Below, piece after piece: positions 7,120 to 64,000 of a stretch of DNA of 64,000 nt (within the stretch, counting starts at the first letter, position 1; every line of letters starts with the position of its first letter). The translations under genes and the position numbers were made by a program. The stretch lies in IMG/VR virus record IMGVR_UViG_3300030380_005901, positions 62,001-126,000 of that record; one strand, 5' to 3'. Source of the DNA: a virus. Under the pieces are notes generated by a model. The model did not search any database. It saw only the letters and a program-made list of their open reading frames with translations, and was not told the DNA's origin.

Positions 7120-7311
7120 ATGTTAAAAGTAAACGTAAAAAAAGGAAATATAGAGAGGGCACTTAAAGAAATGAAAAGTAAATTCATTAAAACTAAGGTT
7201 GCTAGAGAATGTAGAAAGAGAGAAGAGTTTACTAAACCATCTGTAATAAGAAGAGCAGAAATAGGTAAAGCACAGTATGTACAAAAGAAAAGAACTGAAG
7301 AAGATATCTAA
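7120..7311 (+). CDS. rpsU: Ribosomal protein bS21
   Basis: 63 residues: MLKVNVKKGNIERALKEM, then K-x-x-KF-KT-V-REC-R-R-EFTKPSVIRRAEI and K-A-YVQKK, matching bS21 of Bacteroidota closely over its full length. bS21 is a small-subunit protein at the 3' end of 16S rRNA; in Flavobacteriia it helps hide the anti-Shine-Dalgarno sequence. Phage copies can replace host bS21 and bias initiation. It is one of few plus-strand genes and overlaps the ferritin gene by 35 nt, so the two are probably coupled. Confidence 0.95.
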   Translation: MLKVNVKKGNIERALKEMKSKFIKTKVARECRKREEFTKPSVIRRAEIGKAQYVQKKRTEEDI

Positions 7312-7816
7312 TGTATTAGATAAAGAAATTGTAAATTTAATCAACGAACAGATCTGGTTAGAAAATAACGCATCATTCTATTATTTATACTTATCCACAC
7401 AATTTAGTATTAACGGGTATTCTGGTATATCTAAATTCTTTTTAGATCAATCTGATGAAGAAAGAGAACATATGTTAAAATTAGTTGAGTATTTATTAGA
7501 TGAAGATGTTACACCACAAATACCTAACTATAATTACTTAGAAGATTTAGATGAAAAATTTAATATATTAAGTCATTTTGAAAATTCTTTAATGAATGAG
7601 AAGCGAGTGAGTAGCTCTATTAATGATATAGTATCTAAGTGTAAAGAAAAAGGAGATATTAAAACTGAAAACTTTATGCAATGGTTTGTTATCGAGCAAA
7701 GAGAAGAAGAAAATAAATTTAAGTCTATTATTGATGATATTAAAATAATTGGAGATAGTGGTAGTGGTTTATATGAACTTAATAAAGAATTAGGTTCACT
7801 TACTGAAGAAGAGTAA
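7277..7816 (+). CDS. Ferritin (non-haem iron storage protein)
   Basis: 179 residues with the ferritin four-helix pattern. The first helix has LINEQIWLENNASFYYL (E29), the second QSDEEREHMLKLVEYL (E62 and H65, the ExxH of the ferroxidase site), the third FENSLMNEKRVSSSI (E108), and the fourth FMQWFVIEQREEE (E140 and Q141). All dinuclear iron-site ligands of prokaryotic ferritin are therefore present. The likely reaction is Fe(II) oxidation and storage in a 24-mer. The ATG at 7277 lies inside the bS21 gene; no in-frame ATG occurs later before the first helix. Phage ferritin could guard against Fenton damage or hold host iron. Confidence 0.92.
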   Translation: MYKRKELKKISNVLDKEIVNLINEQIWLENNASFYYLYLSTQFSINGYSGISKFFLDQSDEEREHMLKLVEYLLDEDVTPQIPNYNYLEDLDEKFNILSHFENSLMNEKRVSSSINDIVSKCKEKGDIKTENFMQWFVIEQREEENKFKSIIDDIKIIGDSGSGLYELNKELGSLTEEE

Positions 7817-15483: not shown

Positions 15484-15909
15484 TTACTCTACCTCTAATA
15501 ATTCTACTTCAAACATTAATTTTTTACCAGCCAATGGGTGATTTGCGTCTACTTTTACATCATTTTCATTAATTTCAGTAACAGTAACATTAATAGTTCC
15601 TCTATCACCAGAAGACTGTAATACATCACCTACTTTAACTCCTTCAGGCATTTGTGTTTTTGGTACAACTGTCACCAAACCATCTAAGTATTCTCCATAC
15701 GCTTCAGTAGGCTCAATCTCAATGGTTTTATTTTCACCTTCATTCATACCTAATAAACCCTTTTCAAAACCAGGAATTAAATTTCCTTGTCCTAATATTG
15801 TTTTTAGTGGCTCTCTACCTTCTCCTAAAGAAGTATCAAATACTGTCCCATCCTCAAATTTTCCAGTATAGTTGACTTTAATTGTTTTTCCTGTTTCTAC
15901 TTTTGACAT
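15484..15909 (-). CDS. FKBP-type peptidyl-prolyl isomerase, SlyD-like
   Basis: 141 residues. It begins with the FKBP strand KVNYTGKFEDGTVFDTS, then LIPGFEKGLLGMNEGE, then the EAYGEY motif, an insert-in-flap region (residues about 70-120, VPKTQMPEGVKVGD) and the closing DANHPLAGKKLMFEVELLEV. This is SlyD-type architecture, a chaperone plus prolyl isomerase acting on nascent or unfolded proteins in the cytoplasm. There is no His-rich tail. A divergent homologue of the same length lies at 16494-16919, on the other side of the tmRNA gene. Confidence 0.93.
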   Translation of the reverse strand: MSKVETGKTIKVNYTGKFEDGTVFDTSLGEGREPLKTILGQGNLIPGFEKGLLGMNEGENKTIEIEPTEAYGEYLDGLVTVVPKTQMPEGVKVGDVLQSSGDRGTINVTVTEINENDVKVDANHPLAGKKLMFEVELLEVE

Positions 15910-15992: not shown

Positions 15993-16343
15993 TGGTGGAG
16001 ATGGGGGGATTCGAACCCCCGTCTTGCCCGTCATCCATATGAGATCTTTTTACAGGTTTAGGATAAGTTTTTCTAAACTTCCAAAAATTGATAGATTTTC
16101 GTTAACTGTAAGGTCGTCACTGGCAAATCACTATCATTACCAATATCTCTCGATACAACACCATTTACTTCCTTTGACATCTTAGCAACTTACAAGTATA
16201 CTCAGTTACATGATGTGCTTAGCATCTAATCTAATTAGGCTGCCATAGCATACTCAGCGTTTCCGGCTAAGGTTTTGATGAAGGTCATCACCCATACCTG
16301 AATCTTCACACTTCTCTACGTCAATCAATTCCGTGTCATCCCC
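15993..16343 (-). ncRNA. ssrA: tmRNA (transfer-messenger RNA)
   Basis: 351 nt. The 3' end holds a tRNA T arm (GGGGG-TTCGAAT-CCCCC) and CATCTCC-A-CCA. The 5' end GGGGATG pairs with CATCTCC over 7 bp and includes a G3:U70 pair, the identity element for alanyl-tRNA synthetase. The tag frame at 16235-16267 reads AGNAEYAMAA then TAA, so the full tag is A-AGNAEYAMAA. The terminal CCA is encoded. Length, tag and ends all fit a working, one-piece tmRNA that rescues stalled ribosomes and marks proteins for proteolysis. No SmpB gene lies in the window; ClpP does (22386-23096). Confidence 0.95.
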
Positions 16344-16445
16344 ATATCTTTGACTATATAGTTTTTCTTCCATATATAGTTGTTGATAATGTTTTTCCAT
16401 TTCTTCAACGTACACTTCTTCGTAAAGTTGTTTAACTCTTCCCAT
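16254..16445 (-). CDS. Small ORF overlapping the 5' part of the tmRNA
   Basis: 63 residues: MGRVKQLYEEVYVEEM, a charged helix to about residue 34, then a tail encoded inside the tmRNA. The last 29 codons lie within the tmRNA 5' region, in a different frame from the tag. A host-type promoter sits directly upstream and would drive both. The first half looks like a real phage small protein; the second half may only be read-through into the RNA. If real, translation would compete with tmRNA folding, or the tmRNA was inserted into the 3' end of an older gene. Confidence 0.5.
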   Translation of the reverse strand: MGRVKQLYEEVYVEEMEKHYQQLYMEEKLYSQRYGDDTELIDVEKCEDSGMGDDLHQNLSRKR

Positions 16446-16493: not shown

Positions 16494-16919
16494 ATGGAAA
16501 AGAAAAAATATACAGTTAATTATAAAATAAATATTAACGAAGAATTAGTAGAAGAAAAAAAAGATTTTACTTTAGTTTCAGATCATCCAGATAATATTGA
16601 CGGTATTAATGTATTATTGTCGGAGTTAGATGATATCAACTTAAAAATACACCCCAAAGAAATTGTTGTGAAGAAAACATCAATTCCTCCATCATTAGCA
16701 TATGGTAAACATAATAAAAAATTAATGGGTACTGTCCCTAAAACATTACTTTATGAAGATTGTAAAGTAGGGGATTATGTATTAATAAATTTAAAAGATG
16801 ATACTACACAAAGAGGAGAAATTAAAAAAGTAGATAAAGAAAGTGTTATAGTAGATTGTAATCACCCTTTAGTGGATAAAACTTTAGACTTAGAACTAGA
16901 AATTATTAGTGTAAAATAA
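16494..16919 (+). CDS. Divergent SlyD/FKBP-like protein
   Basis: 141 residues, the same length as the FKBP at 15484-15909. The C-terminal half aligns: SLAYGKHN, VPKTLLYEDCKVGDYV, G-x-I-KKVDKESVIVDCNHPLVDKTLDLELEI. The N-terminal isomerase core is poorly kept: the FDTS and GFE-GL-GM motifs are missing. It probably keeps the chaperone (insert-in-flap) function while prolyl isomerase activity is weak or lost. It is one of few plus-strand genes and has its own start box and terminator. Confidence 0.75.
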   Translation: MEKKKYTVNYKININEELVEEKKDFTLVSDHPDNIDGINVLLSELDDINLKIHPKEIVVKKTSIPPSLAYGKHNKKLMGTVPKTLLYEDCKVGDYVLINLKDDTTQRGEIKKVDKESVIVDCNHPLVDKTLDLELEIISVK

Positions 16920-22385: not shown

Positions 22386-23096
22386 TTATTTTTCGAGTTT
22401 TTCAATTATTTCATCAATAATTCCATATTCCAAAGCTTCTTCGGAGTCTAACCAATTATCTCTATTACAATCTGCTAAGACTCTTTTTTTAGTTTTACCA
22501 CAAAAATCTGCTAACATCTGAAATAATTTGTCATTATACTTTTCTGCTTCTGCTAGACTAATTTTCATATCTTCTACGTGCCCTTGTGCACCTGCAGATA
22601 CTTGATGTAACATTACTTTAGAATTAGGTAGAGCAAACCTTTTCCCTTTTGTCCCATTACCTAATAGAATAGATCCCATAGAAGCTGCCATACCAGTATT
22701 AATAGTCACAATATCGGATTTAACATAATTCATAACATCTACCATACTTAATCCTGACTTAACTGATCCACCTGGCGAATCTACGTGTACAATTATATCT
22801 CGACATTCAACGTTATCTAAAAACATTAATTGTGCTTGTACAACAGTACTCATTTGATCATTCACCGGACCCGCAACCCACAATATCCTATCCATCATTA
22901 ATCGTGAGAAAATGTCCATCTGAGTTACTCTCATTTCTCTTTCCTCTAATATATAAGGTGTGAGACTAGAAGTTACCATACTATTATTGTAGACACTATC
23001 TTGTAGTTTTTCCCAATAGTGAAACTGTATTCCACTAATACCTAAATGCTTCATAGCATAATTCTTAAATTCACTGTAAAAATCTAAATTCATCAT
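22386..23096 (-). CDS. clpP: ClpP-like ATP-dependent protease subunit
   Basis: 236 residues. The ClpP fold begins near residue 60 with RLMMDRILWVAGPVND; the serine nucleophile is S139 in TGMAASMGS, the histidine is H164 in VMLHQVSAG, and an acidic residue follows in DNWLDSEEA (about 213-217). The HVDSPGGSV oxyanion loop is intact. Residues 1-55 are an N-terminal extension not usual for cellular ClpP. Phage ClpP may mature virion proteins or join host ClpX to change degradation; the tmRNA in this genome makes the second idea attractive. Confidence 0.93.
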   Translation of the reverse strand: MMNLDFYSEFKNYAMKHLGISGIQFHYWEKLQDSVYNNSMVTSSLTPYILEEREMRVTQMDIFSRLMMDRILWVAGPVNDQMSTVVQAQLMFLDNVECRDIIVHVDSPGGSVKSGLSMVDVMNYVKSDIVTINTGMAASMGSILLGNGTKGKRFALPNSKVMLHQVSAGAQGHVEDMKISLAEAEKYNDKLFQMLADFCGKTKKRVLADCNRDNWLDSEEALEYGIIDEIIEKLEK

Positions 23097-28278: not shown

Positions 28279-29730
28279 CTATACCGTTATATTCTCATAT
28301 CTAGTACTATCAACAGTTTTCATCATTACTGAGTAAGGAGTTAAATTCTCCCCATTCAATACTGACTTTAGTATTGATGGACTAAATCCTGAGATTAAAG
28401 CGGTGTTCATCTCATCCTGTTTAACAGGAAAATTATCATTACCTCTGGAATGAAGATTCCAAAATACTATTGTTGGTATTTCATAACCAGCTTCTTCATA
28501 TTTTGTTTTAATCATCTCCATTGCAGTAGGATTCCAATCAGAAGATTCTTCCCAACGATTTCCTGTCGCTGCATCGAATTCCATATCTGATAATATTAAT
28601 ATTTTTGTCGGCATTTCCCCTAAAGGAATGTTATGAGTTACTGCCTGATTCAACAATAAATCAAATGTTGCCGTTAGATTTGTACTCATTCCCCAATGTG
28701 CACTTCTTAACTGTTGTAATTTACCTTTTAGTGAATCACCAGTTAAGTACTGTAAACTCGGTGTTGAAGAAAAAGTTAAAAAACTATCTTTAAATGCTCC
28801 TTCATTCCTTTCTGAAATATAGATACCTAATGATATTGCTACATCCATACAAGTAAGTGAATCATTACTACCTGCGGAACAACTCATTGAACCTGAAACA
28901 TCAACCATTGGTAAAACTCTATCCTCATTACCTTCCATAAAGTTAGGTAAGTTATCCCATTGATTTTGAGAAACTGTTTCATCAACACCAGTATACAAAG
29001 TCTTTAAAATATCGTAAGGGTATAGTGCTCCACTATTAACTGTAGTTTTACCTTCTTTAAGGTCTTCTACAAATTGGTTATATCCCTTTTCATCTCTTCT
29101 CCAAAACGCTTTTTGGTATCTTGCCGATGCCAATGAAGGTATTTTAGAGTAGTCAATTTCTTTCCATCGATTTGAACACATCTTAGTTTCTACTACATCT
29201 GTCAAACCTACTAATCTTTTTCTTAATTCTTTTGGGGAAACTTTTAAAGCTCTTCTAACTTTGTTAAATACTTCACCTTTACGAGGCATCCACTTAGCAC
29301 ATAAACCGTCTTCGTTACCTAAGGCAGTTACGATTAAGTCTATAACCATACCTTCTAACTCACTACCAATTAATGTAAATACATCATCCCATCTTCCGTA
29401 TTCAGAAATAAGATGAACATTCTTTTTAACAACATCTGGTGAAAGTTTTACTAAGTGAGAAATAACATCTCTAAAGATTTGTCTCTCACCGGCACCTTCT
29501 CTAACATCTCTTACCCAAAAAAGGATACGAGTTGCAACTAATGGGTTTTCACTATATGCTTTGGAAAATTTTTCAATTAAGGTAACTTTATTTTTCCCTC
29601 TCATAGCCCCAATAGAGAAAAATAAATCTACACAGTTATTTAGTGTAGTATTATTTGTAGACATACCGTTTTCGGTTAATTGCGTTTTTTCTTCCTCCAT
29701 TTCTCTGTATTTAGTCATTGAATTAGCCAT
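28279..29730 (-). CDS. DUF2828 protein: TROVE-like helical region plus vWA domain
   Basis: 483 residues from MANSMTKYREMEEEK; the start is fixed by the promoter at 29771-29802, which excludes the longer frame. Residues about 25-250 are helical, with FWVRDVREGAGERQIFRDV, EYGRWDDVF, AKWMPRKG and KIPSLASARY, as in DUF2828 and the related TROVE domain of Ro60. Residues about 270-480 are a vWA fold with a full MIDAS: PMVDVSGSMS, then T (NLTATFD) and LSDMEFD. Ro60 binds Y RNA and misfolded RNA in its helical ring; DUF2828 function is not established. The adjacent structured RNA makes an RNA-binding role plausible. Confidence 0.88.
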   Translation of the reverse strand: MANSMTKYREMEEEKTQLTENGMSTNNTTLNNCVDLFFSIGAMRGKNKVTLIEKFSKAYSENPLVATRILFWVRDVREGAGERQIFRDVISHLVKLSPDVVKKNVHLISEYGRWDDVFTLIGSELEGMVIDLIVTALGNEDGLCAKWMPRKGEVFNKVRRALKVSPKELRKRLVGLTDVVETKMCSNRWKEIDYSKIPSLASARYQKAFWRRDEKGYNQFVEDLKEGKTTVNSGALYPYDILKTLYTGVDETVSQNQWDNLPNFMEGNEDRVLPMVDVSGSMSCSAGSNDSLTCMDVAISLGIYISERNEGAFKDSFLTFSSTPSLQYLTGDSLKGKLQQLRSAHWGMSTNLTATFDLLLNQAVTHNIPLGEMPTKILILSDMEFDAATGNRWEESSDWNPTAMEMIKTKYEEAGYEIPTIVFWNLHSRGNDNFPVKQDEMNTALISGFSPSILKSVLNGENLTPYSVMMKTVDSTRYENITV

Positions 29731-29770
29731 AATTTTGGTTGTTTTTATATTGTTCTTTAAAAGTGTGATA

Positions 29771-29802
29771 CAAATATAGGGCAAATATATTTAAAAGTCA
29801 AA
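29771..29802 (-). promoter_or_regulatory. Host-type promoter TTTG-N20-TATATTTG
   Basis: Minus strand TTTG (29802-29799), 20 nt, TATATTTG (29778-29771), a perfect Bacteroidota promoter. The leader to the ATG at 29730 is about 35 nt. Confidence 0.8.
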
Positions 29803-29820: not shown

Positions 29821-30519
29821 TTAAAAAGTTAATTTATAACCCACCCCTCTTACAGATTTAAAGAAGGTATTAGGGGTTTTGTCCTTCTCAAATATTTTTC
29901 TTAAAGACAGTATAACATTATCTATTGTTCTAGTTTTTATGTAAACATCATACCCCCATATCTTTTCTAAAATTTCTTCTCTAGACACAACTTCATTATT
30001 TTTACTAATTAAAAGTTTTAATAATTTAACTTGTCTTTGGGTTAATCTAAATTCATCACCCACCTCATTACTGACAATAAATGATTTAAAGTCAATACTA
30101 TGATCACCAATTTCTATTTTATCAGTAGTCATATTACTAACGTTTTTACCAAATAATTTAATATAATTTATGGTTTTATATTTTATTTCTTCATAAGACA
30201 AAGGTTTTACTAAGTAATCATTTACACCATTCCGTAATAATTGTAACATTTTGTTTTCATGATCGTGAAAACTAATATATATAATAGGTGTTTTACTATC
30301 CTCTAATCTTATGGTTTGAACTAAGTCTAACCCTTCGATATCCACTAATTTTTCATCTAAAATTACAACATCAAACCTAGATTCTCTTATTTTTGTAAGT
30401 CCCTCTTTTCCATGTATTACGGCAACACACTCAAAATTTTGGGTGTCGAATTGTTCAGTAATTGATGAATGGATTTCTTTATCTACACCAATTATTAATA
30501 TTCTATTTTTTTCCTCCAT
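29821..30519 (-). CDS. OmpR-type response regulator
   Basis: 232 residues. Receiver domain at about 5-118 with phospho-acceptor Asp in VVILDEKL and Lys in DYLVKPLS; the usual acidic pair near residue 10 (DD) is altered to a VDKE stretch. Winged-helix domain at about 135-230: LTQRQVKLLKLLISKN, EILEKIWGYD, TRTIDNVILSLRKIF and FKSVRGVGYKL. It should bind DNA and adjust transcription. No histidine kinase is in the window, so it may act without phosphorylation or be driven by a host kinase. Such regulators are rare in phages. Confidence 0.92.
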   Translation of the reverse strand: MEEKNRILIIGVDKEIHSSITEQFDTQNFECVAVIHGKEGLTKIRESRFDVVILDEKLVDIEGLDLVQTIRLEDSKTPIIYISFHDHENKMLQLLRNGVNDYLVKPLSYEEIKYKTINYIKLFGKNVSNMTTDKIEIGDHSIDFKSFIVSNEVGDEFRLTQRQVKLLKLLISKNNEVVSREEILEKIWGYDVYIKTRTIDNVILSLRKIFEKDKTPNTFFKSVRGVGYKLTF

Positions 30520-61981: not shown

Positions 61982-64000
61982 TTAATAAATATTTCCTCTA
62001 TTTGTGACAATTTCTATAGGAATTGTCGTACTATAGGTAACACTTGTTATTATTTCCCCAACAATAGGTGTATATAATTTTTGGTTTTTAACTCTATAAA
62101 TTAATTTATCACCAGCAACCGCTTCACTTAAATCAATAATCAAAGAATAATTATTTTGTCCTAATACATAAGGTGTAGATGCAATATATTTTACGTCCTT
62201 AAAATCTTCGTCACTTACATCTGTAACTTCTATAGTAAATAATCCTTCTTGACATATTGTAGGTGCATTAGGTATTACCCAAGATAACTCAGGTTTATTT
62301 GTTTCCACACTTCCAAATACACCACTAATAGGATTAAAAAACACTTGAATTAAATCACCTTTTTTAATTTCTACTAAAATTATTAGTCTTCTAGGATCTG
62401 TATCTGATCTCATATACTCTATATTATATGAAAGTTGGTTACCATTTAAAGTTAACCCTACATCACCTATTGCATCAACCGGTAAATAATACTCATATGT
62501 TTGTTGAGTAGTATTATAATATAATTTATCTTCTTTCCCTTGTTGTCCTGTAGGTCCTGAAGAAATAGGTTCAGTTACGGTATAATTATCAATTGATAAT
62601 TCATTTGGATTACCGTCCTCCACAAATGCTAACGTAACCATTCTATCTGCTAATGTTGGTGTAAAAAAGTCTATATAAAATGCATTAGGTGTGTCTGTAT
62701 TAGCACTATATTCAACCCCTTTTGATTGAATTACCCCATTATAAGACACTAAGGGATCTGATAAAGAGTTATAAAAAAATCTAGTGTCTCCAGATTCAGT
62801 TTTAAATGAAGTTACTCTTAAATTACTGATGGTATTAGGTTCTCCTGGCTCATTAATGAAGGTTGGTTCGTCCGCTTCAAAAAGATTTAAAAAGTACCAA
62901 TCTGTTTCGGGATTATATAAATTATATTCCGTACCTCTTTTATAGTTATTAACACTATTTCTTCTTCTACCTAATTCTTTTTGTATTAATGTTTTAATCG
63001 GATAATCAAAATATCCTTTTATTATAAATTCCCCCTCATCTATTTCATTTAAAGGTATTGTTAATGTAGTACCACTTTCTCCACTAAATAAAGTATAATC
63101 AAAATCCTCTACTAAAACGGGATTATCATTAAATACACCTCTCTCACAATCAAAAGAATAAATTTCTGCAGTGAAATTCAATTTATTTGGTTGTATGACA
63201 TTTGAAACGTCATTTAATATTAAGTCAAACTCAAAAGGAGTTCTATCACGATCACTTATATAAACATATCTATCACAAGATAATGTCTTACTAGTTATAA
63301 CATTTGGTAATCCCCATGTGGACGTAATACCTGTACTGATACCTGTTAATGAAAACCCTTCTTCTTCAAAATTACATTGTACCCCTAATCCGTTAGGTCT
63401 ATGTATAATGTGTAAAAAATCTTTTAGATAATCAGCAACATATATTTTTTCATCAGGACCCATTTGTAACGCACCTAAACTAGCAGTAATAGGTAAGTCA
63501 GCCACAATAATACTATTATCTACCATTTCAGTAGAAGAAGTGTAAGTTAAATCATATTGTATTATTTTATTAGATGCACCATCACTTACATAGAATTTAG
63601 AAGAATCGGATGAAAATTCTAAACCATAAGGTCCGTTTATAAAAAATGTGTCACCACTTATTAATAACTCATTAGACAATGTACCACCTGTATTATTAAA
63701 ATCTAATACTTGAATTAGGTTCTCATCATAAAATAGTGAAACTAATTTACTACTATCTGGTGACGTTTTCATATACCCCCTATTAGTATTATATGTAGTA
63801 CCTGTATCACTTATTACTGCAGATGCTATACCACCACTCTTTACCCTAAACGAATAAAATTTAGAATCTCCACTAGTGTGTGTTATAACCCAATAATCAG
63901 TTTCATTAAAATGAGAACAAGCGGTAACTTTTTCACAAATAGGGGTACTAATTAAAGGCATATTTTTAAAAATAATTTTACCATCTCCACCTGCCCTATT
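61982..64000 (-). CDS. Partial CDS: beta-propeller virion protein resembling flavobacterial surface proteins
   Basis: The frame stays open past the internal ATG at 63961 to the window edge (GGDGKIIFKNMPLISTP), so the true start lies outside; at least 673 residues are seen. The first 240 hold propeller blades: CEKVTACSHFNETDYWVITH, YMKTSPDSSKLVSLFY, LEFSSDSSKFYVSDG, LQMGPDEKIYVADY and TWGLPNVITS. These motifs are typical of gliding/type IX-linked surface proteins of Flavobacteriia. The rest is beta-rich and fibre-like. It may have been captured from a host for adhesion. Confidence 0.75.
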   Translation of the reverse strand, partial: NRAGGDGKIIFKNMPLISTPICEKVTACSHFNETDYWVITHTSGDSKFYSFRVKSGGIASAVISDTGTTYNTNRGYMKTSPDSSKLVSLFYDENLIQVLDFNNTGGTLSNELLISGDTFFINGPYGLEFSSDSSKFYVSDGASNKIIQYDLTYTSSTEMVDNSIIVADLPITASLGALQMGPDEKIYVADYLKDFLHIIHRPNGLGVQCNFEEEGFSLTGISTGITSTWGLPNVITSKTLSCDRYVYISDRDRTPFEFDLILNDVSNVIQPNKLNFTAEIYSFDCERGVFNDNPVLVEDFDYTLFSGESGTTLTIPLNEIDEGEFIIKGYFDYPIKTLIQKELGRRRNSVNNYKRGTEYNLYNPETDWYFLNLFEADEPTFINEPGEPNTISNLRVTSFKTESGDTRFFYNSLSDPLVSYNGVIQSKGVEYSANTDTPNAFYIDFFTPTLADRMVTLAFVEDGNPNELSIDNYTVTEPISSGPTGQQGKEDKLYYNTTQQTYEYYLPVDAIGDVGLTLNGNQLSYNIEYMRSDTDPRRLIILVEIKKGDLIQVFFNPISGVFGSVETNKPELSWVIPNAPTICQEGLFTIEVTDVSDEDFKDVKYIASTPYVLGQNNYSLIIDLSEAVAGDKLIYRVKNQKLYTPIVGEIITSVTYSTTIPIEIVTNRGNIY

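What the first reader, a model, noticed from the sequence alone, without database searches (positions are those of the whole stretch)
15993..16343. Complete phage-encoded tmRNA with an unusual tag
Seen: 7-bp acceptor with G3:U70, T arm, encoded CCA, and a tag frame AGNAEYAMAA-stop. Known: tmRNA tags usually end in ALAA; Flavobacteriia tags are typically GENNYALAA-like. The different body and AMAA end may change recognition by host ClpXP. A ClpP gene lies 6 kb away. Inference: the phage may steer tagged products to its own ClpP or slow their decay.
Basis: partly seen in the sequence, partly recalled or inferred. Interest (0 to 1): 0.74.

Follow-up and report, generated by a model that had tools for sequence, protein, structure and literature searches.

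The report
Phage tmRNA linked to phage ClpP
A large virus, probably of Bacteroidota bacteria, carries its own intact copy of the RNA that frees stalled ribosomes; its tag is ordinary for that bacterial phylum, but related viruses often keep this RNA beside their own ClpP protease gene with unusually long tags, which suggests a virus-run clean-up system.

Summary
A complete one-piece tmRNA lies at 15993-16343 on the minus strand of a 159.6-kb T4-like phage record (86.5 bits, cut-off 47; tag GNAEYAMAA). Across 17 viral homologues, 45 tested pairs are 95% paired and 18 show two-sided changes.

The AMAA end is not unusual: it ends 63 of 146 tags read from Bacteroidota genomes (ALAA 51). Only the NAE body looks viral: GNAEYAMAA was in 0 of 146 cell tags and 1 of 103 genome stretches, a phage contig. 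Nothing supports slower decay.

Of 44 viral records picked for ClpP alone, 36 carry a tmRNA; in 22 it lies 82-1148 nt downstream of clpP on the same strand, with conserved 25-26-residue tags (...ENFL...GEVAxA). In 19 other records a ClpC-like ATPase lies 2-5 kb away. Some encode SmpB. In cells, 0 of 29 genomes have the two genes within 10 kb. The window's phage is an offshoot: clpP 6 kb upstream, short host-like tag, no SmpB or unfoldase in its possibly incomplete record.

The tmRNA is a known kind; the viral clpP-tmRNA pair appears unreported in the papers I could search.

The parts
15993..16343 (-). complete one-piece tmRNA (ssrA) gene, 351 nt
   Evidence: ARAGORN; RF00023 86.5 bits, full length; covariation over 17 homologues
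16235..16264 (-). tag reading frame, GNAEYAMAA-stop
   Evidence: ARAGORN coding part 80-109; sequence
16337..16343 (-). 5' strand of the 7-bp acceptor stem, pairs with 15997-16003; G3:U wobble
   Evidence: sequence; G-U in 17 of 17
15997..16003 (-). 3' strand of the acceptor stem; A discriminator at 15996
   Evidence: sequence; pairs counted
15993..15995 (-). encoded 3' CCA
   Evidence: sequence
16004..16020 (-). T arm, 5-bp stem and 7-nt loop
   Evidence: helix 10: all pairs standard, 3 pairs with two-sided changes
16277..16292 (-). first pseudoknot (GGT/ACC and GATG/CATC stems) just before the resume codon
   Evidence: mapping; helices 3 and 4, 100% paired but nearly invariant, so weak as covariation evidence
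16254..16445 (-). 63-codon leader ORF that starts 102 nt before the mature 5' end of the tmRNA and runs into it; open across the boundary in 4 of 4 close relatives compared
   Evidence: no Pfam match; coding not proven
15484..15909 (-). FKBP-type peptidyl-prolyl isomerase, next gene downstream of the tmRNA
   Evidence: PF00254 E 7.2e-22
16494..16919 (+). diverged FKBP-like protein, divergent gene upstream of the tmRNA
   Evidence: 39% over 82 aa to the neighbouring FKBP, E 2e-9; no Pfam match
22386..23096 (-). phage ClpP, Ser-His-Asp triad present
   Evidence: PF00574 E 5.8e-58; PDB matches; triad in 80 of 80 phage ClpPs
25237..26259 (-). DnaJ co-chaperone (proteostasis neighbour)
   Evidence: PF00226, PF01556, PF00684
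27488..27784 (-). thioredoxin (proteostasis neighbour)
   Evidence: PF00085 E 1.7e-29

Best explanation
This is a working, canonical one-piece tmRNA of a large T4-like phage. In infection it is probably transcribed on its own, trimmed by host RNase P, charged by host alanyl-tRNA synthetase through G3:U, and used with host SmpB to free ribosomes stalled on broken mRNA. The rescued chain gets AGNAEYAMAA. Because this end is the commonest kind in the Bacteroidota, a host ClpX-class unfoldase should accept it and pass the protein to host ClpP and/or to the phage's own ClpP. Phage ClpP and tmRNA are most likely parts of one viral quality-control kit, since relatives keep the two genes side by side. 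Shown: the RNA gene, its structure, its tag, the conservation, the gene pairing in relatives. Inferred: expression, charging, SmpB use, which unfoldase and which ClpP act, and that it helps the phage.
For: Full-length RF00023 and ARAGORN hits. Covariation in 17 homologues, 18 of 45 pairs with two-sided changes. Same tag in 6 other viral contigs. AMAA is the commonest tail, 63 of 146, in Bacteroidota cells. UvsX-like recombinase matches only Flavobacterium phages, 4 of 4 records. No SmpB and no PF10431 unfoldase in the 159.6-kb record. tmRNA in 36 of 44 ClpP-selected viral records, 22 of 44 directly downstream of clpP; 36 of 80 ClpP loci by nhmmer. 0 of 29 cell genomes within 10 kb.
Against: No expression or biochemical data. 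In this phage the tmRNA is 6 kb from clpP with a divergent gene between, so it is not the gene pair seen in relatives. The H2 helix is weakly paired in this alignment (83%) and the Rfam alignment is uncertain in the pseudoknot region. The record may be incomplete, so absent SmpB and unfoldase are weak evidence. Host phylum is inferred. 8 of 44 ClpP-bearing records had no tmRNA hit, so ClpP does not require a tmRNA.
Confidence: 0.68

Rival explanations
1. Dedicated viral route: tagged proteins go to the phage ClpP rather than to host ClpXP, because the tag body and the phage ClpP have co-evolved.
For: clpP-tmRNA pairing and virus-specific long tags in relatives; phage ClpPs form one clade of 80 of 80 with support 0.95; the residue aligned with E. 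coli Tyr62 (numbering recalled) is His in 73 of 80 phage and Tyr in 21 of 22 cell sequences, a hint of altered unfoldase docking; NAE tag body seen only in viruses.
Against: In this phage the tag end is host-like, the record encodes no PF10431 unfoldase, and tmRNA and clpP are not adjacent.
Confidence: 0.13
2. The tag slows decay or spares phage products.
For: Met in place of Leu near the C-terminus is a change from the E. coli-type degron (recalled).
Against: The same Met is the commonest in Bacteroidota cells (63 AMAA + 7 RMAA of 146 tags).
Confidence: 0.04
3. A decoy that ties up SmpB or the rescue machinery, like the tRNA-domain-only tmRNA of mycobacteriophage DS6A.
For: Precedent discussed in PMC4131195 and PMC11915505 (passages read).
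Against: This gene has an open, conserved tag frame and a full scaffold; the relatives' long tags show coding selection, which a decoy would not need.
Confidence: 0.06
4. A passenger or an attachment-site remnant of integration into a host ssrA gene.
For: tmRNA genes are common integration sites (abstract of PMC11915505).
Against: Whole gene, not a 3' fragment; not recently taken from a sampled cell (best cell matches are only 28-32 nt of the tRNA-like end or tag); kept with covariation in many viruses; the record has T4-like baseplate and replication genes. Integrase genes were not searched for.
Confidence: 0.04
5. Built-in substrate: the leader ORF 16254-16445 is translated, and RNase P cleavage at the tmRNA 5' end cuts its message before a stop codon, so that maturing tmRNA makes its own non-stop mRNA and the 34-residue leader peptide is tagged.
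For: ORF open across the mature 5' end in 4 of 4 close relatives, with synonymous changes upstream (2 to 5 per pair against 0 to 3 non-synonymous).
Against: Few sequences; the ratio is modest; not seen in the more distant L004, L005 and L009; the overlap could be chance.
Confidence: 0.05

Closest known systems
Bacterial one-piece tmRNA (Rfam RF00023)
   Same: full-length match, acceptor with G3:U, T arm, pseudoknot before the resume codon, tag frame, stop codon in the next hairpin
   Different: carried by a phage; among the shorter copies (351 nt; 120 fetched Bacteroidota copies are 349-409 nt); lower score than the 150 listed cell copies (86.5 against 105.8-200 bits)
Phage-encoded tmRNAs (mycobacteriophages such as Bxz1, Bacillus phage G, Streptomyces phages, huge phages)
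   Same: complete phage tmRNA; reported in 402 of 18,146 phage genomes (PMC9004378, passages) and, with SmpB, in huge phages (PMC7162821, passages)
   Different: short Bacteroidota-type tag with a viral NAE body; sits in a lineage in which tmRNA pairs with clpP or a clpC-like gene
Cellular Bacteroidota tags such as GNYEYAMAA (Lewinellaceae) and GNTQYAMAA
   Same: GN start and YAMAA end
   Different: viral Ala-Glu in the body; best nucleotide similarity to sampled cells limited to 28-32-nt stretches
Phage Clp components (ClpP in Lak and other huge phages; ClpA core gene of 'moraphages')
   Same: phage ClpP and Clp ATPase are known: sequence matches in public phages; moraphage ClpA in PMC12619734 (passage)
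   Different: no link to a tmRNA is described in the passages I read; no tmRNA was found in the stretches of LR745206.1 and Lak-A1 that I scanned around clpP and clpC

Membership tests
tmRNA (RF00023) | covariance-model match above the gathering score over the full model | tested here: met
   86.5 bits against 47, positions 1-374 of 374
tmRNA (RF00023) | alanine-type acceptor with G3:U and T arm | tested here: met
   G-U at pair 3 in 17 of 17; T stem 100% paired
tmRNA (RF00023) | tag reading frame with resume codon and stop | tested here: met
   GNAEYAMAA*; exact tag in 6 other viral contigs
tmRNA (RF00023) | structure supported by compensatory changes | tested here: met
   18 of 45 pairs (shuffled mean 7.3); slid controls fail. 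H2 helix only 83% paired
tmRNA (RF00023) | processed, aminoacylated and active with SmpB | not testable with these tools
   needs RNA and infection experiments
Phage-encoded tmRNA | lies in a phage genome | tested here: met
   IMG/VR record; baseplate wedge, tape measure, UvsX-like, SSB, DnaB-like helicase in the same record
ClpP (PF00574) | family match and Ser-His-Asp triad | tested here: met
   E 5.8e-58; triad aligned
Viral clpP-tmRNA pair (proposed here) | tmRNA within 1.5 kb downstream of clpP, same strand | tested here: not met
   gap 6,042 nt in the window, 6,033 in G004, 6,041 in G003
Viral clpP-tmRNA pair (proposed here) | 25-26-residue tag with ENFL and GE[VL]AxA | tested here: not met
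   window tag has 9 residues; 22 paired tmRNAs have 25-26
Viral clpP-tmRNA pair (proposed here) | ClpP belongs to the same viral clade | tested here: met
   window ClpP nests in a 17-member clade (support 0.889); the 15 loci besides the window and L496 all have a long-tag tmRNA

The most novel reading that the evidence does not exclude
Large Bacteroidota-type phages run their own tag-and-destroy system: a viral tmRNA with a tag rewritten (25-26 residues, ENFL...GEVAxA, or about 21 residues, KLxxLGL...) for a viral Clp protease whose gene lies next to it, with viral SmpB in some. The window's phage keeps the viral ClpP but carries a tmRNA with a short host-like tag, a natural swap that would let one test tag against protease.
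Probability: 0.35. Interest if true: 0.82.

Novelty: new variant of a known kind. Interest (0 to 1): 0.62.

Why it matters
Why phages carry tmRNA is open: rescue of ribosomes, recycling of amino acids, or control of chosen proteins. A recurrent clpP-tmRNA gene pair with conserved, virus-specific tags says that tagging and destruction are selected together in viruses, and it gives a direct test: swap tags and ClpPs in reporters. The window's phage is useful as the exception that carries a host-like tag. The Bacteroidota survey also corrects the view that AMAA is odd.

Tried and rejected
Rejected: AMAA as an unusual end. Rejected: the SAG record L172 as a cell with this tag; it is a phage contig whose tmRNA lies at the contig end. 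Rejected: the tag type as a simple marker of whether the phage has an unfoldase; short-tag records G026 and G032 also have a PF10431 protein. Not a second tmRNA in this phage: the other two RF00023 matches are 17-18 bits and fall on tRNAs. Led nowhere: nucleotide search of phages with the tmRNA found only short matches, mostly of the T-arm end; the 659-aa protein at 61982 had no phage match; the cultured relative Flavobacterium phage immuto has no tmRNA in the 150 of 160.4 kb scanned and no annotated ClpP there; a search for YAMAA in papers gave 2 listings that I did not open. ARAGORN misses or mis-frames many long viral tags, so I read them by the ENFL motif and tested the frame. Records under 60 kb were left out. 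Not tested: integrase in the record, promoters, RNA expression, and how far ClpP-bearing phages differ from size-matched phages in tmRNA content (only the published 2.3% for all phages is at hand, so the excess is not a controlled figure). Many of the 44 and 80 records are relatives, some nearly identical (G208/G209, G206/G227, G215/G216), so counts are not independent.

Full report
WHAT IS THERE. ARAGORN calls a tmRNA at 15993-16343, minus strand, tag GNAEYAMAA*. Rfam RF00023 matches the same 351 nt over positions 1-374 of 374 at 86.5 bits, cut-off 47, E 3.5e-32. The acceptor GGGGATG pairs with CATCTCC, with G-U at the third pair; the T arm is 5 bp with a 7-nt loop; CCA is encoded. The record is an IMG/VR virus of 159,562 bases with a baseplate wedge subunit, tape measure, UvsX-like recombinase, single-strand binding protein, DnaB-like helicase and ribonucleotide reductase, so it is a tailed, T4-like phage. 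Its UvsX-like protein matches four phage records in a collection of 50,697, all Flavobacterium phage immuto, at 42%. A Bacteroidota host is therefore likely but inferred.

IS IT MORE THAN CHANCE. The pattern for GNAEYAMAA found 6 viral contigs, and ARAGORN finds a tmRNA with that tag in 6 of 6. I aligned 17 viral tmRNAs (chosen from those) and tested 45 pairs that I laid out on the window sequence. 95.3% of cells pair; 18 pairs have two-sided changes (shuffled mean 7.3); 50 cells have them (shuffled mean 13.6); sliding the partners by 1-3 columns drops pairing to 38-52%. The pseudoknot before the tag is paired in all but nearly invariant, so it says little; H2 is 83% paired.

IS THE TAG UNUSUAL. 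A scan of genome contigs for a tag ending N-x-[polar]-Y-A-M-A-A-stop gave 103 stretches, mostly tmRNA tags of Saprospirales, Chitinophagaceae, Bacteroidales, Akkermansia and Desulfovibrio relatives. Two Bacteroidota records, one of them Lewinellaceae, have GNYEYAMAA, one residue from the phage tag. The only GNAEYAMAA among the 103 is L172, from a Prochlorococcus single-cell genome; that contig is a phage relative with the same FKBP and neighbours and holds the only tmRNA above cut-off in that assembly. I then drew 158 genomes of the phylum of the Lewinellaceae genome G039 (Bacteroidota): 151 had a tmRNA. I fetched 150 of the 151; ARAGORN read a tag in 146, of which four look spurious. Ends: AMAA 63, ALAA 51, RLAA 17, RMAA 7, SLAA 3, AYAA 1, others 4; none is GNAEYAMAA. 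What does look viral is the NAE body: a second viral scan, for [DN]-A-E-x-A-[LMI]-A-A-stop, found 76 stretches, among them DNAELAMAA in 16, GNAEYAMAA in 6, and GNAELAMAA, DNAEYAMAA and long tags ending NAELAIAA (77 loci examined).

SURROUNDINGS. Same strand: FKBP just downstream, ClpP 6,042 nt upstream, DnaJ, thioredoxin; a ferritin-like gene elsewhere in the window. A divergent, diverged FKBP-like gene starts 48 nt from a leader ORF. The leader ORF 16254-16445 runs from 102 nt before the tmRNA into it, and is open across the boundary in the window, L006, L007 and L008. No SmpB and no PF10431 unfoldase are in this record, which may be incomplete.

THE ClpP LINK. FKBP relatives gave 21 loci. 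Of 25 records then searched whole (19 of those loci, plus the 6 tag matches), 7 have ClpP and 11 have a tmRNA over the cut-off; 6 have both. To remove that selection I searched viral contigs with the window's ClpP: 167 relatives, 80 kept. Of 46 records of 60 kb or more I searched 44: 36 have a tmRNA. In 22 of 44 it lies directly downstream of clpP on the same strand, gap 82-1148 nt. With an nhmmer model of those 22, 36 of all 80 ClpP loci have it within 1.5 kb (37 rows, one locus twice). In G003 and G004, the window's relatives, the gap is 6.0 kb, same strand. For comparison, tmRNA was reported in 402 of 18,146 phage genomes (PMC9004378, passages); this is not size-matched. In 29 cell genomes of the phylum with both genes placed, none has them within 10 kb; 7 of the 29 have both on one contig, at 112.8 kb or more.

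LONG TAGS. The 22 paired tmRNAs encode 25-26-residue tags, for example GNEFDIDENFLDTASVEVGTGEVAFA and DNDFIVSENFLDEAVMVSNGEVALA. The frame is real: over 47 close pairs of 20 distinct tags, 34% of codon differences are synonymous in the tag frame against 13% and 9% in the other frames, and third positions change most. A second arrangement has a ClpC-like ATPase of about 660-690 residues, its PF10431 domain 2-5 kb from the tmRNA on the same strand: 5 records. The one scanned with Pfam carries both AAA domains and has the sequence GTGIGF (GTGVGF or GAGVGF in others) where, from memory, ClpA and ClpC dock on ClpP. Tags there are about 21 residues, for example GKTISKLSTLGLIREESVVAA. SmpB is in 1 of 25 and 7 of 50 records. 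Records G008, G208 and G212 hold tmRNA, SmpB, ClpP and a PF10431 ATPase.

WHERE THE WINDOW FITS. Its ClpP has the Ser-His-Asp triad and matches solved ClpPs. All 80 phage ClpPs in the tree form one clade against 22 cell ClpPs (support 0.95); the tree used 22 of 30 cell loci, those my motif caught. The window's ClpP nests in a 17-member clade whose other members, apart from its close relative in L496, all have a long-tag tmRNA, whereas the ClpP of G003 (L504), which shares the short tag, lies elsewhere. So tmRNA and ClpP have been reshuffled, and the short AMAA tmRNA probably replaced a long-tag one in this lineage. That is inference.

HOW IT WORKS. Most likely a normal tmRNA that uses host SmpB and AlaRS, with a degron that the host unfoldase accepts; products go to host and/or viral ClpP. 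Relatives suggest that a viral route exists, and there the tags are virus-specific.

NOVELTY. Phage tmRNA, and tmRNA with SmpB in huge phages, are known (PMC7162821, passages; PMC4131195, passages; PMC11915505, first part of one section and passages). Phage ClpP and ClpA are known (PMC10013915, PMC12619734, PMC12363816, passages). I found no paper on a clpP-tmRNA pair or on these tags in searches of an open-access library that lacks most subscription journals.

Noticed in passing
L172:1535-3961 (contig QCKH01000014.1, filed as a Prochlorococcus single cell): A phage contig related to the window carries a TonB-dependent receptor (plug, CarbopepD_reg and beta-barrel domains) and a lipoprotein-like gene between tmRNA and FKBP; possible receptor-related moron gene, and a case of phage DNA in a single-cell genome.
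   Followed up: partly
window 16254-16445: Leader ORF that runs into the tmRNA; RNase P cleavage would leave its message without a stop codon.
   Followed up: partly
L526 (IMGVR_UViG_3300050139_000086): Two tRNAs with CTA anticodon in a phage of the clpP-tmRNA group, a hint of amber recoding.
   Followed up: no
L710:2876-3281 (LR745206.1, 634,780 bp): GOLLD RNA, 287 bits, about 2 kb upstream of a ClpC-like gene in a huge phage.
   Followed up: no
window 28279-29784 and 29821-30519: A DUF2828/DUF7788 protein next to an OmpR-type response regulator with receiver and DNA-binding domains, unusual for a phage.
   Followed up: no
window 7277-7816: Ferritin-like protein encoded by the phage.
   Followed up: no
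G199:C1:82619-82990 and 327939-328335: One 380-kb virus record holds two tmRNAs above the cut-off, one next to clpP.
   Followed up: no
L136, L255, L277, L284: Other viral tmRNAs with 27-28-residue tags ending in AELAMAA, NAELAIAA or DAEFA[LI]AA, including permuted ones.
   Followed up: no
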